A stretch of DNA of 23,347 bases from a virus. This document shows, piece after piece, positions 735-23,347 of this stretch; the first letter of the stretch is position 1; every line of letters starts with the position of its first letter. The stretch lies in the IMG/VR virus record IMGVR_UViG_3300025941_000098, positions 1 through 23,347 of that record; one strand, written 5' to 3'. Made by a program: the position numbers and the translations under genes. Below the pieces are notes generated by a model that was given only the letters and a program-made list of their open reading frames with translations, ran no database searches and was not told the DNA's origin.

Positions 735-3700
735 CTAGTTTCCGAAGCAGGCGTAGTCGAAGATATGGCCGCTACTGGACGTGTTAACGATGGTGATGGC
801 GGCCAGCGTGTAGCTGTAGGAGAAGGCCGCATCAGGCGTTTGGGACCCGACTTTGCAGTGGTTCCATGACCGATAGGCTGTGGCGAACGTGACGACACAG
901 CCCGTGGTCGTGGTGCCCTCTGTGACAACGCCGTGCGCCATGTTGGAATGGCTCTCAACGGTCGGCGATCCGGTGCCACAGGCGGATAGCACCGGCACCG
1001 CCGTCGAGACATTGGTCCAGGTGAGCAGGCCGCCGATCTGGATCAGGTTGGTTGTGGTAGATGTCGGCAGCGCGCCGTTGCCTGCGGTGGTAGATAGAAC
1101 GATGTTATTGCCCCCAGCCGTGGCCAGGGTCTGGCAGGCATTCACACCAAGGCAGAGGTTGTTGCCCGATGTGGTAATATCCTTGCCGGCATTGACGCCG
1201 AGCAGGGTATTCGCGTTCGCCGTTGTAAGGGCGATGCCAGCTCCTTTGCCCACTGCGACGTTGTTGGTCGTGCCGTGGGCAACCAGCATGGATTGAAAGC
1301 CGATAGCGACATTCGTCGTATCAGTAGACATCGCCGCGCCCGCGCTGCTGCCGATAATCACGTTCTGAGAGAACGCCTGGCTTACGTCCGCCGCTACACT
1401 GTTTCCAATCAGGACGTTGTTGGATGGAGTCGTGATCCCCGGATTGCCCATGATCCCGCGTCCGACGAGCGTATTCGTGCTCGGGTTGCTGGCTGCCAAT
1501 CGGGTGATCGTGTTGGTGCATGTGCCGGTGCAGCTCACGGCGAGGTCGATCAGCGAGCCTGTGGTCTGGGTCCCGAGTTGGTGCAGCGCGATATAGTTGA
1601 CGCCCTGGCTGTCGGTATAAAGGGTCGTCAGAGAGGATGGGCTGACATAGGTGCTCGGGTTTCCGCTGACCGCCGGGATCGTATAAACGAGCGTCCCGAT
1701 AGTCGCGTTGATCGCCGCCCAGAAGTGCTGTGCGAGCAGCAATGCCGTCGTGTCACCGGCAACGACCGTGTAATTAACCGTCAGCGGTGATCCTGTGACC
1801 AGGCCGCTCGCCGACGAATAGGTGACGGTATAGACCGAACCGACGCTTGGCGTGCCGGTGCCGAGCATGATCGTGCCGGCGCTGCCGTGTAGGTTGCCGT
1901 TACCCACCGACGTATCGTTGACCATGTGACCGTCTGCGGCAGCGCCAGAACCGATGATCGTCGCGCCGGCACAGTCCGTCGTGTCGCGCATCACGTCAGC
2001 ACCGACCGCCGTACAGGCAATCGGCGCGGTGTCCTGGCCGCCTGTGTGCTCTCCGATGTACACGTTGGCATGGGCATTGACCGCATAGGGCAGCGACAGA
2101 GGACCGATCGCCACGCTCTCCGACGTTCCGTCAGTCTCCGATCCCAGAGCCCAGTGCCCGATGGCAATGTGGCCTTCGCCGGATGGCAGGTTGATACCTG
2201 CATACTTCCCCATGATAACGGCGCTGAGGCCGGACGTCTGGTTGTTGAACCGTATCCACGGGACACCGGCAACGCTGAACACGGCAGGGCTGGGAAGCAT
2301 GTTTATGGCGGTAGCCGCGACGGTATTCGCTGCCACGTTGCCGAGTGCTGGAGGCGAGGAGAAACTACTGCCGCCGCCGCTGCCTGCGGGGCATGTCCAT
2401 ACGCCGCTGCCGGTCGAGTAGCAAAGCAACTGATTTGCTGTGTCAACGACGAACGCCGCCTTTCCTAGCGCTCCAACTACGCCCGTAGGGGCTCCAGCCA
2501 TCGTAGGAATTTGGAGGAACCCGGAGGTAGCATTCGTCGCCAGCGCAGAACCGCTGCCAACAATCACGTTCTGGCCGGTATCACCTAGTTGCAGCAGGCC
2601 AGTCGGTGCCGTGGTGATGTTCAGGGTGGCGTTATCCAGGCCGGTGCCGCCCTTTACCGCGACGCCAGCAGGATTTGCCGCGGTTGGGAAGCCGCTATGC
2701 CCGGCAACGGCGGTTACCGTGGCGATCGCTGTGCCACTGAGCGTGGCAACGTTCCATAGACCACCGTACGGGTCCCATATCTGGTCTCCGACCTTATAGC
2801 CCGAGCCGCCACTGGCCACAGCGGCGGACACTTCTGTAAAGCCAGGCACAGATAGCTTGGCGCCACCCGAGATGTAGGTCAGCGACGCCGGACCGATCGT
2901 TTGCTGGCCCTGGCCGTCCACTGTCCAACCGGTGCTGCGCCATGCGAAATTGAGGAAATTCACACCAAACAGGTCCATGCCATAACCGGCGGTCGCCTGC
3001 CATGGATGGGTAACCCCTGCACCGAAAACAGGCATTGGCCGCATGATGGCGCTGGTCGTCAATGTGGTATCAATGGGCCAATCCTGGCCAAGCTCGCCAA
3101 TTTGCATGAGGACGGTGTTGCCGCCCGTGCCTGGGGCAATCGAACCGGCAGATGAGAAGGAGATTGCATAGTCCTGGATCGAACCATGCCCAGCGTCCGC
3201 AACGCCATTGTGGAATGTGGTGTTTCCCTTCGAAAGAGACGTGCTGGTGGCGGTAAGGCGCAGATCGTTTTCCTGGACCAAGACAACGCGGAAAGCGATG
3301 CCTGAGGTGCCGGCATTGTTGCCGGCGCGGGTGTCAAAGTTTACCGATGAGGCCCGACCAGATGGCGCCGCCGGATTGGTGCTTTCCCCCACGTCGTAGT
3401 GCATGAATGCCAGCAGGTTGAACGGCGCGGTGTCCAGACCATCGGTAGCCGCCGCTAACTTGTTGTAGGTCAGGACCAGGTTAACACGATCCCCATTCGC
3501 TCCTGCGTTGTATGCGTGCGAGATATTAAGATCGGCGGTCCCTGGAAGGGCTCGCGCGAAATTCGCGGTGTCGGCAACATTGATCATGTTAAGGTTCGGC
3601 GTGCCTGAGCCGGTGTCTACGGTCCCGGTCCAGGTGACATTCTGAAAAATGCCCATCGGGTTGATCGGTCCAGAACCCATGGAGGTTCCGGCGGCCAGGG

Positions 3701-4502: not shown

Positions 4503-4762
4503 GCATCCTGGTTGGCCTGTCTGCCGGCGCCGCGCTGCTGTATTTCTGGCTGCGCGGCCACTGGTTCGCCCGCATACTGGTATTCCTGCCAATCGGGGTG
4601 TTTGGCTTCGTTGCCGGGAGCAACGTCGCACCGACCTATATGGTCGTGGCGCTCATCTTCGGCGCAATAGGCGTGATCGCCGCGTGGTTCATTTCCGGTC
4701 TTCCGATCTACTACTGGCGCCATAAGATCGCCGGCCTGATGCGTATAATGGAATACCACTAG
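4499..4762 (+). CDS. Three-helix inner-membrane protein (plus strand), possible holin or exclusion protein
   Basis: The GTG start at 4499 overlaps the upstream TGA as GTGA, giving 87 residues. Three hydrophobic segments are visible: about 3-18 (ILVGLSAGAALLYFWL), 25-42 (ILVFLPIGVFGFVAG) and 46-70 (YMVVALIFGAIGVIAAWFI). The C-terminal tail is basic (YYWRHKIAGLMRIM). Size and topology fit a class I holin or a small superinfection-exclusion membrane protein, but no signature separates these. The stop codon shares a CTAG palindrome with the stop of the convergent ejection gene, leaving no room for a terminator. Together with the secreted peptide before it, it forms a two-gene unit directed at the cell envelope. 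Confidence 0.7.
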   Translation: MSILVGLSAGAALLYFWLRGHWFARILVFLPIGVFGFVAGSNVAPTYMVVALIFGAIGVIAAWFISGLPIYYWRHKIAGLMRIMEYH

Positions 4763-6333
4763 GGCGGAGCCCCTGGACCTAGGCGGTTTTGCACGCCCTG
4801 GCCCAACACATCCATTGCCCCCTGTAAGCGGTTTTGCTGCATCCTCGTTGCCAGATTGCGGGCATAGTTAGAACCAAAGTGCGTTACGGCGTAGGCGCCG
4901 ATTGCGCCCGGCACGCCCCCCACAGCTCCTATGCCACCGGCAACCATAGGCACTAGACGGCTGCCAAGCTGATAAGCTGCCTCGCCGAGCGTGCCTCGGT
5001 CGCGCGCCTGTTGCAGCGCCGCGATTTCCTCCGGACTATAACCCCGCAGTCGCTTCGGATTAGCCAGCAGCGTGCGAACCCCGGTAATGATGCCGGTGGA
5101 CGGCTGCGCCTGGCCCTCGGCGCGGGCAGCGATGCGCTCCAGGTCGCCCATCTTCATTGCCTGCGCCCACACAGCCCTGGCACGGGTAAGAGCATCGAAG
5201 CCCTGCGCACCGCCCGACACGTCGATTGGCTCGGCTTTGGCGATCATGTCGCGGAATGTCGATTGCAGATCGAGCAGGTTGTTGCCTTCTTTGCTCAGAC
5301 CCTTGAGACCGTATTCCTTGTCGATCATGTTGCCGAGTGCTTCGTCGATCTCCTGCGCTCCGGCTAGCGAGATCGGCTTGTCGGCGAGTTGCTTGATCCG
5401 GTTGACCAGCGAGGTTATCGGCGTCTCGCCGGCAACAGCCAGCCCTTCCTCGGTCTGTGGCGCGATCTTCTGCACCTCATCGATGAATTTGCTGGTGAAT
5501 TGCGGCGTCAGAGTTCCGCCAGACTGTGCCGCCTGATCATACAGCCGACCGGCAATCGCCTTAGCCTCGGCAGCCGTCTTTGGCACGGCTCCGGCAGATG
5601 GCGCCGTCAGAGCACCACCAGACGGCACTACGGCGGGCGGCGGAGGTGGCGGCACTCCAGGCACGCGAACCGCAACGCCAGGCCCTACTGGGTGTTCTGC
5701 GGACCGGGCGGCGGCGTCCGGCGATAATAGATTGCCCTGCTCGATCTGGAGCGGCGCCCGGCCCTCCAACAACCCAGACGCGGGCAGTTCCATCGCGCCG
5801 CCGCCGAACCGCAGTGGGGAAGCCGCGAACGGTGCGACCGACGCTGCCTCTGGGGTAAGTGCCGGCGTTCCGGTTTCCGGATTGAACGTCACGCCCGGCA
5901 CCATCAGCCTGTTGTTCTGGACCTGTGGCCCCTGCGTTGTCAGTCCGACAATCGGGTCTCGGATCATCCCAGGAATGGCGGGAACGACCTCTCCGGTTGC
6001 TGTGTTGCGTGCCAGCGGCAGGATATTCGCCCGCTCAAAGCCGGGCGGTGTCTGTAGACCGACTACCTGGCTCGGAGCCGGCGGCAGCTTCCCGCCGAGA
6101 TAGGAACCCGACAGAGGGTCTTGCTCTGGTTCTGGCGGCTTCGGCTCCTCTGGCGGCGCCGCCTTGAAGCCATACTCGCCAGCGCCGCCGCCTTTGGTCA
6201 GCGGCTTCCACTGGCCGCCATCGAGCACCAACTCGTCGCCTGCGTCGTTGCGCGCGCGCGGCGCCGGCATCCATTTCTGGGTGCCAGGATCGAGCGTCAG
6301 GTAATTGCCGTTTCCGTCTGTGGCGATCGGCAT
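4759..6333 (-). CDS. Internal virion / DNA-ejection-type protein (524 aa)
   Basis: This starts with ATG immediately after the stop of the upstream ejection gene. The N-terminal ~60 residues have a short hydrophilic pattern (LTLDPGTQKWMPAPR, LDGGQWKPLT), followed by a Pro-rich, low-complexity middle to about residue 250. A helical region follows from about 255 to 440 (AEAKAIAGRLYDQAAQ, FDALTRARAVWAQAMKMGDLERIAARAEG). Near the C-terminus is a Gly/Ala/Val-rich hydrophobic segment (LVPMVAGGIGAVGGVPG) that could contact membrane. Length, helical character and position after two other ejection-type genes fit a third ejection protein, in the place of P22 gp16 or gp20. No enzymatic motif was found. 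The assignment rests mainly on context. Confidence 0.7.
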   Translation of the reverse strand: MPIATDGNGNYLTLDPGTQKWMPAPRARNDAGDELVLDGGQWKPLTKGGGAGEYGFKAAPPEEPKPPEPEQDPLSGSYLGGKLPPAPSQVVGLQTPPGFERANILPLARNTATGEVVPAIPGMIRDPIVGLTTQGPQVQNNRLMVPGVTFNPETGTPALTPEAASVAPFAASPLRFGGGAMELPASGLLEGRAPLQIEQGNLLSPDAAARSAEHPVGPGVAVRVPGVPPPPPPAVVPSGGALTAPSAGAVPKTAAEAKAIAGRLYDQAAQSGGTLTPQFTSKFIDEVQKIAPQTEEGLAVAGETPITSLVNRIKQLADKPISLAGAQEIDEALGNMIDKEYGLKGLSKEGNNLLDLQSTFRDMIAKAEPIDVSGGAQGFDALTRARAVWAQAMKMGDLERIAARAEGQAQPSTGIITGVRTLLANPKRLRGYSPEEIAALQQARDRGTLGEAAYQLGSRLVPMVAGGIGAVGGVPGAIGAYAVTHFGSNYARNLATRMQQNRLQGAMDVLGQGVQNRLGPGAPP

Positions 6334-9458: not shown

Positions 9459-9803
9459 TCAGTCCTCCAATTCCAAGACGTGCTCGTCTGCCACCGCCGG
9501 CTCATCATTTTCCAGATGATCCGCGTTGTGGATGCACGCCAGCGCCACGTCGTCGGTGAGCGTCAGGAAGCTGTGCAGCGTCCCAGCTGGGATACGGACC
9601 ACAGCCGGCGCGCAAAAATCCCCGATCATCTCCTCGCCATGCCATGCCCGGACGGAACCTTGCAGTATGGCGGTCAGGTGGTCGAAGTGGTGCCCATGCT
9701 GAGGGAGTAGCGTGCCGGCGTCAGGCACCCGGTACACCTTATAGTAAATCCCCGCATAGATTGATACGCTGACGGTCTCCGGCTGGCGTTCCGCGCGTTT
9801 CAT
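9459..9803 (-). CDS. Small cupin-fold protein
   Basis: A 114-aa single-domain cupin. The first cupin motif is visible around residues 36-49 (QHGHHFDHLTAILQG, with His36, His38, His39 and His42 as candidate metal ligands). The second motif is around 72-79 (PAGTLHSF, His77). The protein is the right size for one beta-barrel and carries no second domain. Cupins of this kind bind a metal and can be isomerases, dioxygenases or non-enzymatic binders; the substrate cannot be read from the sequence. The ATG overlaps the stop of the HNH gene as ATGA. Before the HNH gene entered, it would have been next to the oxygenase gene, so the two may work together. Confidence 0.8.
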   Translation of the reverse strand: MKRAERQPETVSVSIYAGIYYKVYRVPDAGTLLPQHGHHFDHLTAILQGSVRAWHGEEMIGDFCAPAVVRIPAGTLHSFLTLTDDVALACIHNADHLENDEPAVADEHVLELED

Positions 9804-10306
9804 TCTGTCCTCGCGTATGGCCCATGGACACGCTTAGCAGCCTTACCATAAGCCGCGTGCGCCTCAGAGGCAGAGGCGAACCGTCCAAGGCACGTCTGCT
9901 TTCCTTTGAACTTTATCCTCGCGCGCCACAGTCCCGTGTCAGCGCATAGGGAAACTCCCTTATAACCGCTTCGATTCGAAGGCGCTGCGCCTCTGTTAGC
10001 GCAGTTCTGCGAACGGGATGCGGCTCTAAGGTTAGCCCATCGATTGTCCCGGACATCTCCGTTGATGTGGTCCATGTCGTATTTTGGCCAGCGTCCTGTG
10101 ACCATAAGATAAATTACCCGATGGACGAGGTAGGGCTGTCCATACAGAGAAATCTGAATATACCGACTGGTCGCGCCCATCATACGTACGGGACGTTCGG
10201 GGTGGCAGCGCCCTCCAGCGTCGATAAATGCGCGGCGCGTCAGCGCGCCTGTATCAGGGTTGTAGGTAAGCCTGGATCGCACATCCTCCGCGGTTAGCCT
10301 ACTCAC
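9800..10306 (-). CDS. HNH homing endonuclease with AP2 DNA-binding domain
   Basis: A 168-aa protein with the standard free-standing homing-endonuclease architecture. An HNH nuclease core lies at about residues 58-105 (YLVHRVIYLMVTG with His62, then YDMDHINGDVRDNRWANLR with Asp79-His80 and conserved Asn82, Asn88 and Asn92). An AP2-type DNA-binding domain follows at about 113-163 (SGYKGVS, LWRARIKFKGK, LGRFASASEAHAAY). These enzymes cut intron-less or insertion-free alleles and so spread their own gene. The GTG start overlaps the 3' end of the oxygenase gene by 8 bases, and its stop overlaps the cupin start by ATGA, so it is embedded without visible damage to either neighbour. It is best read as a selfish insertion in the virion operon. 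Confidence 0.9.
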   Translation of the reverse strand: MSRLTAEDVRSRLTYNPDTGALTRRAFIDAGGRCHPERPVRMMGATSRYIQISLYGQPYLVHRVIYLMVTGRWPKYDMDHINGDVRDNRWANLRAASRSQNCANRGAAPSNRSGYKGVSLCADTGLWRARIKFKGKQTCLGRFASASEAHAAYGKAAKRVHGPYARTE

Positions 10307-10841
10307 TGCGCATACTCACAATGACCACGATACGATCGCTATCGCCATCGTTTGCGATGCTATGCATCAGCAGATTGTCAAAAGTAAATATCGTCCCGGC
10401 ATCAAACCGCATGGTCTCATCCTCACAACGCACTAACGCAGTGCCAGCGAGTGTGATATGAGCCTTACAGTTATAAAAACAAGGCGCCCAATTGCCCGCG
10501 TCAGAGTGCGGCAATATCTCGCCGCCTGGCGGTAACTTGGTGATCAGGATAGACCCGAGTTCCACTGCCGCAACCCGGTGCATTAGCGCGAACACCATCG
10601 GCCGCAGAGATGGCAGCTCATACCATGCCGGCCAGAACACGTTGCGATGCTCCAGGCGCCGCGCCTCCATCGTAAGCAGATGCTCCGACATGTAGCGCAC
10701 GGTGATGTCGGTCATCGCCCCATGTGGCGTGCCTGGGTAAAGCCGCCGTTCCGGGTTCCGATCCCACAGATGCGAAGCTCGGTTCAGTTCGGCCAGCACC
10801 GGTACGCAATCAACCCCGCCTGCCAACTGCACAAACCGCAT
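10299..10841 (-). CDS. 2OG-Fe(II) oxygenase, aspartyl/asparaginyl beta-hydroxylase-like
   Basis: A 180-aa protein whose C-terminal half shows the double-stranded beta-helix oxygenase pattern. The HxD iron ligands are His112 and Asp114 (GGEILPHSDAG). The distal ligand is His160 in FDNLLMHSIAND, and Arg170 is positioned to bind 2-oxoglutarate (GDSDRIVVIV). An Arg about 10 residues after the second His fits the aspartyl/asparaginyl hydroxylase group better than classical prolyl hydroxylases, which use Lys. The start is ATG at 10841, sharing one base with the upstream TAA. A longer in-frame extension to 11066 runs antisense to codons of the upstream gene and is rejected. The substrate is unknown: a virion protein, a host protein or a small molecule are all possible. 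Confidence 0.8.
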   Translation of the reverse strand: MRFVQLAGGVDCVPVLAELNRASHLWDRNPERRLYPGTPHGAMTDITVRYMSEHLLTMEARRLEHRNVFWPAWYELPSLRPMVFALMHRVAAVELGSILITKLPPGGEILPHSDAGNWAPCFYNCKAHITLAGTALVRCEDETMRFDAGTIFTFDNLLMHSIANDGDSDRIVVIVSMRSE

Positions 10842-11455
10842 TACCGCACCCGCCTCGCTCCCACGAACCCACCAGCCGCCACCACGCCGCTGGCGAACGT
10901 CGCCAGCGCCCCGAGATACACCGTGGTCGTCGCTGCCAGGCTGAACCGCCGCGGCGACAGCGCCAGCACCGTCTGTGTCGCGTAGAACCCGTTCGTCGCG
11001 TGCCGCATCGAGGCGTAGCCGGGCGACGGCTGCGACGGCTCGGAGGCAGATGCGTTGTTCACCCACGCGGCGATGATCGCCATGTTGCCGGCCGAACTCG
11101 TGAAATGGACCACCCCGGCCGCGTCCCAGTCACCTGCCGTGAGGGAAATGCTGCACACGTTGGTTGCTGCAGAAAACCCCAGGCCGACGCTCGAAATCGC
11201 CGCGCTGGCCGAGATGTATTCGCCTTTGTCGCCCGCCGCCGCGTCGCTGCCGTCCGTGACGCCGTGACTGAGTGCCGGCAGACCAGCCTTGATGTCATCC
11301 ACCACGCCGCGCAGCACCGCGAGCTGGTCGGCCATCTGCTGGAAATGGTCGAGCCAGGCACCCGTAGGGGCGCCCGTGTCCTTGTTGACGACCGGCGCCA
11401 CCAGAGGCGGCTGAATGCGCGGCGTCGATAGCGTGCTGACCGTCGTGATCGCCAT
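10841..11455 (-). CDS. Tail structural protein in tail-needle position
   Basis: A 204-aa protein. Residues about 25-62 form a helix with coiled-coil character (GAWLDHFQQMADQLAVLRGVVDDI). The rest is a beta domain starting at KGEYISASAAI, with NVCSISLTAGDWDAAGVVHF in the middle. That last pattern is common in C-terminal domains of phage tail and fibre proteins. A coiled coil followed by a knob, directly after the gp10-like gene, is where P22-like phages carry the tail needle (gp26), so that role is possible but unproven. The start overlaps the upstream stop as TGATG. Confidence 0.7.
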   Translation of the reverse strand: MAITTVSTLSTPRIQPPLVAPVVNKDTGAPTGAWLDHFQQMADQLAVLRGVVDDIKAGLPALSHGVTDGSDAAAGDKGEYISASAAISSVGLGFSAATNVCSISLTAGDWDAAGVVHFTSSAGNMAIIAAWVNNASASEPSQPSPGYASMRHATNGFYATQTVLALSPRRFSLAATTTVYLGALATFASGVVAAGGFVGARRVR

Positions 11456-15965: not shown

Positions 15966-17093
15966 TTAAGCGTCGCCAACAGCCGTGGTAACGATCGTAA
16001 ATACACCGTTATCAACCGGCGTGGTCGTGTCCACAGTGGCGTGCTTACCAAAACGCAGCTTCTGCACGCCACGGATTTCCATTATGCCAGCGCCATGCTG
16101 GAATCCGTAGTCGCGATTGTTGGTCCTCGCCTGGGTCTTTTGTGCCCATGCGATGCCCACCGCTTGCGCCCCGCAGAGGAACGTGAACGCCGTATCAAGC
16201 GTCGCGTGCGCGTTGGTTCCGCCTCCCGCATACACCGGAATCTCGGGTATTTCCCGCACAACAATGCCATCCCATAGCAGGTCGCCACCGGCAAACAGCG
16301 GATTGCTATCGCCGCGCGTCTGTGCGTACTGATTGGCCGCAAGAACGTTGGCGTCCTTACGGAAGTCACGAAAAACGAGGCTGGGCATCAGAGCCACATA
16401 CCATTCCTCGCCGTTTTCGAGGCGGATCGGCCGGATATGGGGGCTTGCGGTACGAGCGCGACGCTTGGCCAAAGACAGCGTGGCCGCGGTCATCAGGTCG
16501 GCGGTGTTGTCGAGCGTCGCCATAGAAGTTGACCAATCGTTGGACACCGAGTTCGCGACTACTGCCCCGAATTGAATGCGGTCAGCGTTGTTGGTCAGCC
16601 ACGAATTGCACTGAGCGTCAGTGACGGCGCCGAGTGCGCCGCTCGTGCTGCCGTCAATGGTGATTGCACCGAGGGCCGCGATAATGTCCGCACGGATTTT
16701 TTCGACCGCCCAGTCCATCAGGCCGTCGCGACCGGCCTGGAGCAGATCGATGACGGATTTTTGCTCGTCCCAGTCGGTGACCGCGATGGCGTGGCGAATG
16801 ACATCGACAGTGACCTTGAGAGAACGAGAGTTTAACTGCTCCTCTTGGCCTTCCAGCGTCGTGTTTCCGGTGACGCCTGCTGCCGTCAGTCGCCGGACAG
16901 CTCCGAACACGACCGAATCGCCAGGCTTGCGCGTCAGTTCGTCGCGAAGCTGGATCATAGACGCAGCCGTAGTGCCAAAGTATCTGGTGAATTGGTTCCC
17001 GCGGATGTATTCGCGGAAGAAGTCAGTGGACCATTGCGATGGCGTAAGACCGGCGCGTGCGGTCGTCACCACCATGTCAGCCGTGGCGGTCAT
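15966..17093 (-). CDS. Major capsid protein, N4-gp56 family
   Basis: The 375-aa length and motifs fit the N4-gp56-type HK97-fold coat family: REYIRGNQFTRYFG near residue 28, RKPGDSVVFGAVRRLT near 55, GVTGNTTLEGQEEQLN near 73, VIRHAIAV near 98, and the helix DLLQAGRDGLMDWAVEKIR near 116-134. This is the subunit of the capsid shell. The ATG has an AGGA ribosome site at 17103-17106 and is preceded by the longest minus-strand non-coding gap of the window, which carries a three-copy repeat. The gene follows the scaffold, as expected for this phage type. A 22-residue helix at 121-142 is echoed in a small protein encoded upstream. Confidence 0.9.
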   Translation of the reverse strand: MTATADMVVTTARAGLTPSQWSTDFFREYIRGNQFTRYFGTTAASMIQLRDELTRKPGDSVVFGAVRRLTAAGVTGNTTLEGQEEQLNSRSLKVTVDVIRHAIAVTDWDEQKSVIDLLQAGRDGLMDWAVEKIRADIIAALGAITIDGSTSGALGAVTDAQCNSWLTNNADRIQFGAVVANSVSNDWSTSMATLDNTADLMTAATLSLAKRRARTASPHIRPIRLENGEEWYVALMPSLVFRDFRKDANVLAANQYAQTRGDSNPLFAGGDLLWDGIVVREIPEIPVYAGGGTNAHATLDTAFTFLCGAQAVGIAWAQKTQARTNNRDYGFQHGAGIMEIRGVQKLRFGKHATVDTTTPVDNGVFTIVTTAVGDA

Positions 17094-18861: not shown

Positions 18862-19088
18862 GCCGGCGATCCTAAAGCAGCAATGATGTCAGTCCGCAAC
18901 TTGTCCATGGCCCAATTGCGCAGCATGGCCCTGCCCTCCATAACAAGCGCATAAGATGGAGACGCTTCCAATCGCCTGCGTTGTTCTTCGCGCCGAGCTT
19001 CACGCCGCACATCGTTCCGCATCCGCTCATCCCGCTTGCGCCGCCGGACCGTCTTGCGCCTAACGGCATCCGCTAGACTGGCGCTCAT
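18858..19088 (-). CDS. Small very basic protein with a capsid-like C-terminal helix (76 aa)
   Basis: Residues 1-47 are extremely Arg-rich (RRKTVRRRKRDERMRND, ARREEQRRRLEAS), suited to binding DNA or an acidic partner. The C-terminal helix (GRAMLRNWAMDKLRTDIIAALG at residues 52-73, of which I cite the GR, WA and DIIAALG cores) matches residues 121-142 of the major capsid protein at 14 of 22 positions. The start overlaps the portal stop as ATGA, and its stop overlaps the decoration gene start. It could be a capsid-interacting or packaging-related protein; no family is known to me. Confidence 0.75.
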   Translation of the reverse strand: MSASLADAVRRKTVRRRKRDERMRNDVRREARREEQRRRLEASPSYALVMEGRAMLRNWAMDKLRTDIIAALGSPA

Positions 19089-21151
19089 TTGCTCGCCTTC
19101 GGTGGTGGAGGCTGCATGGCTTGGTGTGCCTGAGCCATCTTGTGCAGCACCGTCGCGGCATTGACGTGCGCCGCCGTCTGCTTCTGCCTCAGGTCGGCCA
19201 TGTCGTGCGCGGCCTGCATGGCTGGATGCATCTGCGGCTCTACCGTGCCCGGTGCTGATGGCGGATCGGGCGCCACGTTCGGCTGGCCGAATGGCGGTGC
19301 GCTGAACTCGCTGTGGATGTTGTGTATCCTCTCCGCCGCGAGAGCGCCGTCTGCCGCCGCCTTGGCCTGCGTCGCCTTGACTTGCGCCTCGGCGTGCGCC
19401 TGCACCAGCGGGGCCTGCGCGGCCTGCTGCTGCTGCATCTGCTGCTGGTGCGCTTTCATCCGATCAAGCAGGTCCGCCTTGTTGCGCAGCGAGGACGCAG
19501 CGATCAGCACATCGCCCGGTATCAATCCAGGCTGGACGCTGGCTAGCTGCACGAGCGTCTGGAATGTTTCAGCTTCCATAGTCGGCAGGTTCTGGCCTTC
19601 CTCTACGGTAATATCCACGTCAAGGTCGGTGATGTCGTTCTCAATACGGATGACCTGCTGCAAGCGCGGATCGCCCGGCACAATGCCCATACTCTGCATG
19701 GCAATGGCACGCTGCGGCGGCGGCATAGCCGCCAGTTCGTCCTGCACCGTCACCGGCCGGTTGATGCCGACCCACTTTGTATCGTTCAGGCTGTCCGTCA
19801 CCCGGACCCACTTGCCGCCCGTCCAGTACTCCCGCGCTGCCATCCAGCACATTTCATAAACGCGCCTCGACCACATGCGCAACGAGTCCGCCAGCGGTTC
19901 ATTCTGCACCGCGCCGCCCGCCTGCTGCGCCAGGATCGCACGTCCGCTTAGCTCGCGCGGATCAGTGCCCGACATCGCAGCGTTAGGGCCGGATAGCTGC
20001 AGCTCTTGCGTAGCGTGTTGCAGCAACTGGAACTGCCCGGTTGCCAACTCCCCGCCAGGCAGCACTTCGAACTTCATCCCAGGCGTGACTTCGACATAAC
20101 CATCCGGCCGCGCAATCTCACGCCGCGCCTTGTCCACATCCTTGACCGCGCCTTGCTCGGCGATGACCTGATGGACGCTTAGAAGATGCAGCGACTTGCT
20201 GCGGCGCTTGTTGATCTCATCCTGTAGGCTGATCCATCCGCGCACCGCACCGTATCGCCAGTTGTCGCGCGTGATATACGCCGATTGAAGGATCAGGCTA
20301 CATGCACTCTTGCCGCGCCGATCCTTGAACGGCGACGGGCGCGGATCATCGACAATGCCGCCCTTGGTGAATGTCGCAGACCACCACGTTCCCTGCTCAT
20401 TCCAGTGGCACTGAACAACGCGCGTTCGCTCGCGCCGGCTGTCGAGCCATGTCGCGTGCGACGGGCGGTCGTCATACGTGCCGCCCATCTGGCCGGAGAA
20501 TGCCGCCTCGATCTCGTCAATGGCGTGCGGATACATCTCCTCAAGCTGGTCGCGATCCATCCAGATCACGATGCCGAGGTAGCGCGCATCGGAGAAGTCG
20601 ATGGCACGTGAGTGCGGGTCCCACCACAGCCGTTCCCACGAGACGTGCGTCAGCCGAATATCCGCGCCGCCCTTGCCGTCGTCCTCCAGGCTGCATTCAA
20701 TACCGCCAGCGCCCTCGATCAGCATGTTCTCGAACACGGCGCTGCGCAGCACGGGGAAGTTGTTATCGTCGTCGATGTAGCGCAGAGCCTGCGTTGCAGC
20801 TGTGGCGCGGTCTTCCTCTTGCGGCGTGCGTGGGAAAGCCTTGGGATCGGTGCGCGCCTTACGCTCCAGGCCACACAGCATCGCCACCTTGTCGTGGATT
20901 TTGTTGATGACCACGGCGGGCTGACCACGTAGACGCAGCGCGTCCAATTCGGCCTTGGTCCACTGCGCGTGATCGTAGTATTCGCGGTCTCGCTCGCTCA
21001 GTTCGCGCGGGTTGGTCGATGCGCGTTCGGCTTCCTCGAACCAGCGGACAAGCCGCTCGTGCAGCGCGATCATGTCGCCGGGGTAGACGTCCACGATTGG
21101 CCGCTGCGGCTGCGCGCTGTAGTCCGATAGCTGGGTGACGGATGCGCTCAC
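19085..21151 (-). CDS. Portal protein, P22-like
   Basis: The 688-aa length (P22 portal is 725) and motifs fit P22-type portals. These are an N-terminal helical region ending SERDREYYDHAQW, RGQPAVVINKI with DKVAMLCG and KARTDPKAFPRTP, IEGAGGIECSLEDDGKGG, the clip/stem pattern WERLWWDPHSRAIDFSDARYLG and VIWMDRDQLEE, and a Gln/Ala-rich C-terminal barrel region (QQQMQQQQAAQAP). The protein forms the dodecameric DNA channel at the head vertex and is the docking site of the terminase. The start overlaps the ART-like gene stop as ATGA. Confidence 0.92.
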   Translation of the reverse strand: MSASVTQLSDYSAQPQRPIVDVYPGDMIALHERLVRWFEEAERASTNPRELSERDREYYDHAQWTKAELDALRLRGQPAVVINKIHDKVAMLCGLERKARTDPKAFPRTPQEEDRATAATQALRYIDDDNNFPVLRSAVFENMLIEGAGGIECSLEDDGKGGADIRLTHVSWERLWWDPHSRAIDFSDARYLGIVIWMDRDQLEEMYPHAIDEIEAAFSGQMGGTYDDRPSHATWLDSRRERTRVVQCHWNEQGTWWSATFTKGGIVDDPRPSPFKDRRGKSACSLILQSAYITRDNWRYGAVRGWISLQDEINKRRSKSLHLLSVHQVIAEQGAVKDVDKARREIARPDGYVEVTPGMKFEVLPGGELATGQFQLLQHATQELQLSGPNAAMSGTDPRELSGRAILAQQAGGAVQNEPLADSLRMWSRRVYEMCWMAAREYWTGGKWVRVTDSLNDTKWVGINRPVTVQDELAAMPPPQRAIAMQSMGIVPGDPRLQQVIRIENDITDLDVDITVEEGQNLPTMEAETFQTLVQLASVQPGLIPGDVLIAASSLRNKADLLDRMKAHQQQMQQQQAAQAPLVQAHAEAQVKATQAKAAADGALAAERIHNIHSEFSAPPFGQPNVAPDPPSAPGTVEPQMHPAMQAAHDMADLRQKQTAAHVNAATVLHKMAQAHQAMQPPPPKASK

Positions 21152-22005
21152 TTCGGCTGCGGCCGTAACTTGCTGGGATTAAGCACGGCAAGCGATAAGC
21201 CGCCTTCGTCCTGAACGCGCGCCGCATCATATCCGAGCAACCGCAGCGCGTCTTGTGTCCTGGCGTTCTCAAAATCAGTATCTGATAAATGCCTGAATGC
21301 GCCCAAGGTCTGTGGTATCGCGTTAAATCTTGCGCGCTCCGCATCATTCATTGCCGTATCGGCATTGTCGCCATACTTCGTCAGAATTGCTTCGATGAAC
21401 TTATCATCGGAGGGGGCCACAGATGATGACCGCTTGAATGTGGCCATTTCCAGTTGTTTTGCCTTCTCTAAGACCGCCGGGTCAGGATGTTGGAGTTTCG
21501 CCACCCGTTCTAGCGCCGCATCGGTCTGTCCGATGGTCATAGAGGCCGGCAAACCCTCGCCGTAAACTCGCATATCCGGCGGAACGGTGACAGATAGAAC
21601 TCGTCCGCCAGGAACATCGCCGCGCTTCATAGGACCGACCGCGGAGAAGTCGTCAGCACCAGTAAGACGCTGCCGCATTCCGCTAAGACCACCCTCTACA
21701 GCGCCTTGCTCGGTTGGAGATAGGTACACAGCACCTCTGGAATTCGTCGTGGTAAATTCGCTGATTGGCGCGTTAGTAAAGTGGTAAAAAGTTCGCGGCG
21801 CCGTCGTTCCCATTAGCATCGCGTTGCCATACTGCCGCGCCGCGTCCGTCCAGGTCTGCGGCTGCTGCATCGCGGACCATGTATCGCTCAGGTTCTGCCC
21901 ATGCCAACTCGCCGCATCGGCCCATGTCGGCTGCGGCGCCAGTTGGTTCTGGGGCGCCTGGCCTACCACGGTAGGATCGAACAGAGCATTACGGGCGCCG
22001 CTCAA
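21148..22005 (-). CDS. ADP-ribosyltransferase-like protein between terminase and portal
   Basis: A 285-aa protein. Residues 1-70 contain a duplicated short motif (TWADAASWHG at 28-37 and TWTDAARQYG at 51-60). Residues 72-281 show the pattern of the small ADP-ribosyltransferase fold found in polyvalent and phage proteins (the ART-PolyVal type): FYHFT (His75), RGAVYLSP (Tyr94), GRVLSVTVPPDMRVYG, and a C-terminal LLGYDAARVQDEGG followed by LAVLNPSKLRP. His75, Tyr94 and an acidic residue near 266-267 would be the H-Y-E/D set, but this alignment is by eye. If right, it modifies host or phage proteins with NAD. The start is TTG at 22005, directly after an in-frame TGA, so the start is fixed. Non-enzymatic structural protein is the main alternative. 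Confidence 0.6.
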   Translation of the reverse strand: MSGARNALFDPTVVGQAPQNQLAPQPTWADAASWHGQNLSDTWSAMQQPQTWTDAARQYGNAMLMGTTAPRTFYHFTNAPISEFTTTNSRGAVYLSPTEQGAVEGGLSGMRQRLTGADDFSAVGPMKRGDVPGGRVLSVTVPPDMRVYGEGLPASMTIGQTDAALERVAKLQHPDPAVLEKAKQLEMATFKRSSSVAPSDDKFIEAILTKYGDNADTAMNDAERARFNAIPQTLGAFRHLSDTDFENARTQDALRLLGYDAARVQDEGGLSLAVLNPSKLRPQPK

Positions 22006-22062
22006 TCAGCACTTCCCGCCCTTGCCCGGCTTCATTGGCATGTCCTTCGGCTTACGCGCCAT
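22006..22062 (-). CDS. 18-aa basic leader-type ORF
   Basis: A very small ORF, MARKPKDMPMKPGKGGKC, with an excellent ribosome site (GAGGAGG at 22069-22075, 6 bases from the ATG). Its TGA is immediately followed by the TTG of the ART-like gene in the same frame. It could be a real tiny basic protein. It could instead be a leader whose translation delivers ribosomes to the weak TTG start by reinitiation, or the former N-terminus of the ART-like gene cut off by a nonsense change. Nothing homologous is known to me. Confidence 0.55.
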   Translation of the reverse strand: MARKPKDMPMKPGKGGKC

Positions 22063-22100: not shown

Positions 22101-22349
22101 TCAAGCCCGCATTCCTGGGTCGGTGTCGTGCAGGAGCGCCGCCGGGTCTGCTAGTGACTGCTTTATTGTGTCCATCATATCCTGCGCCACGGCGTTCATC
22201 GCATCGCGGAACCACTGCGTCACGAACGCCTCACGATCCGCTGCCGTCCTCACCGCGTCGTATGGCGCCGCCTCGTATGCAACCAGGAACTCGCGCGCCC
22301 AACGCTGCGGATCGGTGCCGACCTCGCGGCGGAACTGCGCGCCGGTCAC
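22101..22349 (-). CDS. Small hypothetical protein (82 aa)
   Basis: Starts with GTG at 22349, overlapping the stop of the upstream gene as GTGA. The product (MTGAQFRREVGTDPQRW, REFLVAYEAAPYD, FVTQWFRDAMNAV) is acidic to neutral, mostly helical and Asp/Ala-rich, with no signal peptide or membrane segment. Its position just downstream of the terminase gene suggests a packaging or head-vertex accessory, but that is context only. No family recognised. Confidence 0.7.
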   Translation of the reverse strand: MTGAQFRREVGTDPQRWAREFLVAYEAAPYDAVRTAADREAFVTQWFRDAMNAVAQDMMDTIKQSLADPAALLHDTDPGMRA

Positions 22350-22531
22350 CGGCTATGGCGCAGTGCGTTGCGTGGGAACTCCACGACGTGCGCCTTGCCG
22401 CGCATATCCTCGCACAATTCGGCAATCAGTATGCGCAAATCCGCGATCTGATCTTCGAGACCGGAAAACATCTCCTCGACTGTGCGCGGCTGTTCGGGGG
22501 AGTATAGACGGCGCTCCTCGTCGGTCATCAT
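22346..22531 (-). CDS. Small hypothetical coiled-coil protein (61 aa)
   Basis: The product is MMTDEERRLYSPEQP, then a helix TVEEMFSGLEDQIADLRILIAEL with leucine/isoleucine heptads, then a short basic tail (PRNALRHSR). The ATG at 22531 shares one base with the terminase stop (TAATG) and has GGAGG at 22540-22544, 8 bases upstream. The frame is open from 22546, but that start would overlap the ribosome site, so 22531 is preferred (22528 is next). Likely a small partner of packaging or portal proteins; no family recognised. Confidence 0.7.
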   Translation of the reverse strand: MMTDEERRLYSPEQPRTVEEMFSGLEDQIADLRILIAELCEDMRGKAHVVEFPRNALRHSR

Positions 22532-23347
22532 TACGCAATCCTCCACTGTTCCACAGGCTCCGACGCAGCGCCAAAGGCTTCGGCCCAGCTATCACGCGGC
22601 TTGGGCTTCTCCAGGTCGAGCACCATCGGCCGGCTCATGCAGGCATAGCGCACGCTGTCGGGTGCGTGGTCTTCCATGTCACTGTCAACGTCCTCAGGCC
22701 GCGCGTCGTCGTGTTGCAGCGCCGGCAACGTCCGGATGATGTCGCGGCTGGTGGAGAAGAACAGCAGCATCGGCCGTTCGTCCGCATCGCCCGCTAAGCG
22801 CTGCCGAAGCTGATCCCAGCCACCCATTGCACCACGACCTGCAACTCGCTTGTTGTCCGCCGGCCGGAAGATGATGCCAGATCCGATCATGCGCTGTGCA
22901 ATGCTAGGCCCACCGTCCTCTGCGAACATCGCGGGATCGGCCACACCGATCATCGGCTGCGGGTCGTCCTGCTCACGATCACGGATGCCTGCGGCGATGG
23001 CTTCGGCCGTCATGCGCAGACCTACGTTAGGCTCGCCCGGCTTCATGCCATACCATTCGCGATAGTTGACCAGTGCTCCGCGTGCGATGCTGTGGATCGT
23101 TCCGTCTGAAACTGCCCACCAGTGGCAGGCGAACGGACGAGCACTACCCCAGTCGAACGACCGGAAGCGCGGCCAATGATCTGGGATAGCAATTGGAGCA
23201 ATGACGTGACGCTCCATCGAGAACTCTGGGAAAAAACTTCCGGTCACCACTGACCAATCGCCATGCAACCATGCTCTGACGAGTTCTGGTGATCCAGACG
23301 CCTTCAATCGCTGGACGTAATCAGCCCCGAGGTATTTGTTGTCAGTG
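22531..23347 (-). CDS. Terminase large subunit, C-terminal (nuclease) part; 5' end outside the window
   Basis: The frame is open through the right edge; 271 residues are visible. The left of the fragment (DYVQRLKASGSPELVRAWL, quoted for its pattern, then GDWSVVTGSFFPEF) is the junction between ATPase and nuclease domains. The RuvC-like nuclease follows with the expected acidic residues: Asp in FDWGSARP (codon at 23152-23154), Asp in GVADPAMF, and Asp in HAPDSVRYA. It cuts and translocates DNA into the head through the portal. A TTG-start frame at 23307 exists but is only a consequence of the truncated window, because the codons upstream continue the family pattern. Confidence 0.92.
   Translation of the reverse strand, partial: TDNKYLGADYVQRLKASGSPELVRAWLHGDWSVVTGSFFPEFSMERHVIAPIAIPDHWPRFRSFDWGSARPFACHWWAVSDGTIHSIARGALVNYREWYGMKPGEPNVGLRMTAEAIAAGIRDREQDDPQPMIGVADPAMFAEDGGPSIAQRMIGSGIIFRPADNKRVAGRGAMGGWDQLRQRLAGDADERPMLLFFSTSRDIIRTLPALQHDDARPEDVDSDMEDHAPDSVRYACMSRPMVLDLEKPKPRDSWAEAFGAASEPVEQWRIA

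What the first reader, a model, noticed from the sequence alone, without database searches (positions are those of the whole stretch)
21148..22005. ADP-ribosyltransferase-like protein encoded between terminase and portal
Seen: FYHFT, RGAVYLSP, and a C-terminal GYDAARVQDEGG/LAVLNPSKLRP pattern matching by eye the small ART fold known from polyvalent phage and conjugative-element proteins. Known: T4 packages the ART Alt and injects it, and MuF-type toxins are encoded next to portal genes. Inference: this protein could be a virion-borne effector delivered with the DNA, or could modify a head or packaging component. There is no MuF domain, and the N-terminal 70 residues with a duplicated TW.DAA motif are unexplained; they might be the packaging signal.
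Basis: partly seen in the sequence, partly recalled or inferred. Interest (0 to 1): 0.72.

Follow-up and report, generated by a model that had tools for sequence, protein, structure and literature searches.

The report
Swappable effector gene beside phage portal
This gene of an uncultured short-tailed phage joins a constant front piece to an ADP-ribosyltransferase-like enzyme, and in related phages the same front piece carries other enzymes, so it looks like an exchangeable-payload system that may ride inside the virus particle into the bacterium.

Summary
The ORF is real: minus strand, 21148-22005, 285 aa, TTG start, between a TerL fragment and a P22-type portal gene whose start codon it overlaps. 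The enzymatic part is ART-like: H75 is invariant and Y94 nearly invariant in a 20-protein alignment, and a two-sequence profile of the core beats all 100 shuffles against ART profiles. Proof is incomplete: no family library hits the window protein, both structure predictions failed, and the usual third catalytic acid is Ser271.

The main result lies in the unexplained N-terminus. Its 65-70 residues belong to a leader family found in about 50 distinct proteins of uncultured P22-portal podoviruses, mostly in head-gene clusters. One leader family precedes several ART types, GNAT, DUF7178, an HExxH peptidase-like protein and unknown domains. DNA identity between close relatives breaks at the leader hinge (MGTTAPG), and near-identical phages lack exactly this gene. 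Leaders evolve under purifying selection like the portal; the window's core is low-GC and looks acquired.

Best reading: a polymorphic effector cassette whose leader probably loads varied enzymes into the capsid for ejection into the host. Architecture and swapping are shown; packaging, ejection and catalysis are inferred.

The parts
21148..22005 (-). Effector gene, 285 aa, TTG start; stop codon overlaps the portal GTG start
21814..22005 (-). Constant leader module (residues 1-64); predicted mostly as two helices (28-46, 49-63), low confidence
   Evidence: Shared with L009, L002, L011, L017 and about 50 distinct proteins; dN/dS 0.07 vs L009
21796..21813 (-). Hinge MGTTAP (residues 65-70), where DNA identity to the relative with a different core ends
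   Evidence: blastn match to L009 ends at 21809; same hinge is the junction in L064 vs L070/L076/L072
21151..21795 (-). ART-like core (residues 71-285), low GC
   Evidence: H75, Y94 and C-terminal strand motif; profile test; GC of 21148-21801 55.4%, GC3 55.8%
21781..21783 (-). His75, strand-1 histidine, invariant in the 20-protein alignment
21724..21726 (-). Tyr94, strand-2 tyrosine, nearly invariant (90% or more)
21193..21195 (-). Ser271 at the position of the third catalytic residue (Glu in L011; Asn or Thr in the YHGS type)
21319..21534 (-). Helical insertion (residues 158-229) seen only in the window/L002 type of core
   Evidence: low-confidence model
22006..22062 (-). 18-aa mini-ORF MARKPKDMPMKPGKGGKC behind a GAGGAGG-type ribosome site; its TGA abuts the effector TTG; kept in the empty-site relative L049
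   Evidence: read from sequence
22101..22349 (-). 82-aa conserved small protein, present with or without the effector, so unlikely to be its immunity protein
19085..21151 (-). P22-type portal protein, the downstream neighbour
   Evidence: PF16510 E=1.4e-120
22531..23346 (-). TerL C-terminal part (runs off the window), the upstream marker
   Evidence: phrog_2 E=2.3e-15

Best explanation
The gene is one allele of a polymorphic effector cassette of P22-portal podoviruses. A constant, helix-rich leader of about 65-110 residues ends in an MGTTAPG hinge and is joined to an exchangeable enzymatic core; in the window the core is an ART-like domain. Shown: the modular architecture, exchange of cores at the hinge, presence or absence of the whole gene, purifying selection on the leader, and residence mostly in head-morphogenesis clusters. 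Inferred: the leader binds a procapsid component (portal, scaffold or ejection proteins), so the protein is packed with the DNA, ejected into the new host, and modifies a host or defence target early in infection. Inferred and less certain: that the window's core is an active mono-ADP-ribosyltransferase.
For: Same leader with different cores: ART types (window/L002, L009, L011 with PF18760 E=8.4e-29, YHGS type), GNAT (L144 E=4.9e-8), DUF7178 (L164, L165 E about 2e-23 or better), an HExxH protein (L072), unknowns (L017, L184). Breakpoints at the hinge: window/L009 21809, with the portal 93.7% identical on the other side; L064 vs L070/L076/L072 at 3031-3035, with a 31-34 nt remnant of the tail module left after the new core; L097 vs L114. 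Clean empty site in L049 and L118. Leader dN/dS 0.07-0.35, portal 0.11. Leader GC3 76.5% and portal 77.9% vs core 55.8%. ART-likeness. Neighbours. Precedent for virion-packaged ARTs coded near terminase and portal: PMC9503650, PMC5512222.
Against: No virion proteomics could be read for any leader protein. Window core has no significant Pfam, PHROG, NCBIfam, PADLOC or PDB hit. AlphaFold models are poor (mean pLDDT 46.7 and 48.3) and Foldseek found nothing with the first. Single-sequence profile score of the window core is not above the background of other window proteins (14.4, best background 20.2); only the two-sequence profile is. Third catalytic acid missing. Head-cluster location is shared by late genes that are not packaged.
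Confidence: 0.58

Rival explanations
1. The leader proteins act inside the producing cell late in infection, for example on head assembly, host takeover or superinfection exclusion, and are not packaged. The leader simply tethers the enzyme to the portal or terminase.
For: Head-cluster position and translational coupling to the portal fit co-expression with assembly genes; PMC9503650 also raises ARTs that protect packaging components.
Against: Presence/absence in near-identical phages argues against an essential assembly role. The variety of cores under one leader fits delivery of interchangeable effectors better than one assembly task.
Confidence: 0.25
2. A polymorphic toxin used between bacteria or lysogens, as proposed for MuF toxins, with an immunity gene.
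For: Constant N-terminus with swapped C-terminus and a portal neighbour, as in PMC5576092.
Against: No room for a downstream immunity ORF: the stop overlaps the portal start. The upstream 82-aa gene is present also in effector-less phages. No relative was confirmed in 84,980 species genomes with the patterns used, although MuF toxins are common in prophages.
Confidence: 0.08
3. The window core is a decayed or non-catalytic ART-like fold that only binds a ligand.
For: Ser271 replaces the usual acid.
Against: H75 and Y94 are kept in all or nearly all relatives. From general knowledge, human mono-ARTs such as PARP10 work with H-Y-I.
Confidence: 0.2
4. The core is not an ART but another small enzyme with a chance HFT/YL motif.
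For: No family hit; poor models.
Against: Two-sequence profile scores 34.9 against ART profiles, shuffled maximum 19.9 in 100, with both ends in the right order; the same slot holds Pfam-supported ARTs in relatives.
Confidence: 0.15

Closest known systems
MuF polymorphic toxins (PMC5576092, PMC3482391)
   Same: Constant N-terminal head-associated module, variable C-terminal effectors, coded next to the portal, predicted to be delivered by virions
   Different: No MuF domain; leader is unrelated and shorter; mostly upstream of the portal rather than immediately downstream; no adjacent immunity ORF; P22-portal podoviruses from metagenomes rather than mainly Firmicutes temperate phages
Polyvalent proteins and ART-PolyVal PF18760 (PMC5512222)
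   Same: ART cores, GNAT and peptidase-like cores in phage head regions; L011 carries a bona fide PF18760 domain; some relatives have two cores (L166, L169)
   Different: The window protein is a single-core small protein with a dedicated leader, not a giant multidomain protein; its own core does not match PF18760
T4 Alt
   Same: Phage ART that is packaged and injected (as described in PMC5512222)
   Different: Different ART type and, as far as seen, a different head-targeting region; no sequence match was looked for directly
Sulfitobacter phage phiGT1 gene 5 (MT584811)
   Same: Isolated podovirus with a YHGS-type ART and KYGIAG tail in the head cluster after the portal
   Different: Different N-terminus; its virion mass spectrometry is in Table S3 of PMC10386132, which was not readable here

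Membership tests
ART-PolyVal (PF18760) | Pfam model match above cut-off | tested here: not met
   Window protein no hit; L011 with the same leader E=8.4e-29
ART superfamily, H-Y-[ED] clade | His in strand 1 and Tyr in strand 2 | tested here: met
   H75 invariant and Y94 nearly invariant in 20 proteins
ART superfamily, H-Y-[ED] clade | Acidic residue at the start of strand 5 | tested here: not met
   Ser271 in window and L002; Asn/Thr in YHGS type; Glu in L011
ART superfamily | Split beta-sandwich NAD-binding fold | tested here: inconclusive
   AlphaFold mean pLDDT 46.7 and 48.3, no Foldseek match; strand order compatible only
MuF toxin | MuF domain (PF04233/PF06152) | tested here: not met
   No Pfam hit at E<=1 other than Hpf1_C at 0.12
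MuF toxin | Coded in the portal/terminase module | tested here: met
MuF toxin | Small immunity ORF directly downstream | tested here: not met
   Stop codon overlaps portal GTG
Polymorphic effector system (general) | Constant N-terminal trafficking module with recombining C-terminal domains | tested here: met
   trafficking role itself not tested
Polyvalent protein | Two or more disparate enzymatic domains in one chain | tested here: not met
   Window: leader plus one core. Relatives L166 and L169 do have two cores
Virion-packaged effector | Present in mature particles and ejected | not testable with these tools
   Needs proteomics; phiGT1 Table S3 not held

The most novel reading that the evidence does not exclude
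The leader is a dedicated capsid-loading and ejection tag of P22-type podoviruses, unrelated to MuF, that lets a phage lineage exchange injected enzymes (ART, GNAT, peptidase-like, DUF7178 and unknown domains) by recombination at one hinge: a distinct class of polymorphic phage effectors.
Probability: 0.45. Interest if true: 0.8.

Novelty: new variant of a known kind. Interest (0 to 1): 0.64.

Why it matters
Phage effectors injected with the DNA are thought to be widespread but are hard to recognise outside MuF and giant polyvalent proteins. A short conserved leader that marks such cargo would let many unknown enzymes be found by search, including domains without any annotation. It also gives a small, testable candidate for a capsid-loading signal in the P22-type assembly pathway.

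Tried and rejected
Direct family searches of the window protein (Pfam, PHROGs, NCBIfam, PADLOC, PDB sequences) gave nothing significant. No tblastn match in annotated phages or plasmids. Two scans of genome contigs with the leader and the core found no confirmed relative. The idea that the leader derives from giant ejection proteins (hits starting at residue 54 in a Caulobacter phage) was dropped: the upstream sequence there is unrelated. Both AlphaFold runs were too poor to use; a Foldseek search with the first gave noise. Profile alignment against separate ART profiles was weak at each end; significance came from the combined ART profile and shuffles. The 82-aa upstream gene was considered as immunity and rejected because effector-less phages keep a similar gene. 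A short N-terminal pattern N.L..P...N.L.P also occurs in other head-cluster proteins (29 coding-strand vs 2 opposite-strand hits), but the pattern was tuned on the leaders and is only a lead.

Full report
Observation. The ORF at 21148-22005 is on the minus strand, 285 aa with a TTG start. TerL C-terminal part (phrog_2 E=2.3e-15), a 66-aa ORF, an 82-aa ORF and an 18-aa mini-ORF precede it; the P22-type portal (PF16510 E=1.4e-120) follows. The mini-ORF TGA abuts the effector TTG, and the effector TGA lies inside the portal GTGA. The window is a 23,347-base virus record.

Homologues and the leader. A first search gave a 52% identical full-length homologue in one podovirus cluster (L002 and copies) and, in L008/L009, a protein matching mainly the first 70 residues. 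L009 shares 93.7% DNA identity with the window over the portal, yet its C-terminal domain is a different, shorter ART-like sequence. Window DNA matches L009 through the leader up to 21809, not across the core, and again from 21152. The leader alone also found L011, whose C-terminal domain is PF18760 ART-PolyVal (E=8.4e-29), and L017 with an unknown C-terminus.

Breadth. A survey of 80 loci around relatives of the portal and a leader-profile scan giving 54 loci yield 52 distinct leader-matching ORFs, some of them truncated copies of one another or weak. By motif, 35 carry an ART; others carry GNAT (Pfam above cut-off in L144), DUF7178 (L164, L165), an HExxH motif (L072), an unnamed RQLR domain, or unknown sequence. 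L166 has two ART cores and L169 a GNAT core followed by an ART core, with hinge-like sequence repeated between them, as if a new core had been inserted at the hinge in front of an old one. Many relatives also share a hydrophobic tail (AGLxxGGxAAxAGxQQ), which the window, L002 and L009 lack. A second leader type beginning MSGWLSRLFDP shows the same pattern: L097 and L114 share leader and tail but not core.

Exchange points. L064 against L070, L076 and L072 matches through the leader to 3031-3035 (hinge end 3033); against L070 and L076 it loses the core, then matches 31-34 nt of the tail region at 100%, then the portal. This fits core replacement that left a fragment of the tail. L049 and L118 have the mini-ORF stop, 7 nt, and then the portal: exactly the window layout without the gene (the L118 junction rests on the blastn coordinates only).

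Selection and composition. Leader dN/dS is 0.07 (window/L009), 0.09 (L064/L076), 0.10 (L064/L072), 0.35 (L064/L070) and 0.09-0.15 for the second leader type; portal window/L009 is 0.11. These are simple counts on short sequences. GC3 is 76.5% in the leader, 77.9% in the portal and 55.8% in the core, so the core looks acquired and the leader resident.

Position. Of 54 leader loci, 31 lie 15-840 nt upstream of the portal, 3 downstream, and 20 have no portal in the held DNA. Most of the latter that were checked sit beside TerL, scaffold, major capsid, adaptor or Hc3 genes, while a few showed no recognised neighbour. All six records tested carry a P22 portal.

Is the core an ART? In a 20-protein alignment H75 is invariant and Y94 nearly invariant. 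A two-sequence profile (window and L002) scores 34.9 against a combined ART profile versus a maximum of 19.9 in 100 column shuffles; against the two separate ART profiles it also exceeded all 100. The best local match covers the C-terminal strands (P=1.4e-4) and a weak second one covers strands 1-2 in the right order. The window sequence alone scores 14.4, within background. The third residue is Ser271. Structure prediction did not help. I take the ART reading as likely (about 0.8) and activity as open.

Mechanism. Shown: modularity, exchange, optionality, selection, head-cluster residence. Inferred: loading via the leader, ejection, host modification. Prior work places many phage ARTs near terminase and portal and predicts packaging (PMC9503650, PMC5512222), and MuF toxins are a parallel with another N-terminal module (PMC5576092). 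In the papers searched I found no description of this leader family; the library lacks most subscription journals.

Limits. All relatives are from metagenomic virus records found through exact peptide patterns, so numbers depend on those patterns and hosts are unknown. phiGT1 virion data could not be read.

Noticed in passing
L166:2815-4323 and L169:619-2361: Tandem cores behind one leader (ART+ART, GNAT+ART) with hinge-like APGDVPPPG sequence repeated between them, suggesting insertion of a new core before the old one.
   Followed up: partly
L058:2899-3432, L070:3016-3429, L104:1996-2361: Other small portal-adjacent proteins begin with a similar N.L..P....N.L.P stretch, a possible shorter tag shared beyond the effectors; no PHROG hit.
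   Followed up: partly
window 10299-11066 minus: ORF with an HSD...H pattern resembling aspartyl hydroxylase-type 2OG oxygenases among the structural genes; a similar ORF is in L005 12043-12690. By eye only.
   Followed up: no
window 9800-10306 minus: HNH-endonuclease-like ORF with an AP2-like C-terminus by eye, in the tail region.
   Followed up: no
window 4759-6333 minus: 524-aa ORF in the ejection-gene region matches phrog_21712, annotated major head protein (E=4.4e-9), although the capsid gene is elsewhere (15966-17093).
   Followed up: no
L011 6403-7437: 344-aa GNAT-like ORF between tail and ejection genes of the phage that carries the leader plus ART-PolyVal; by eye.
   Followed up: no
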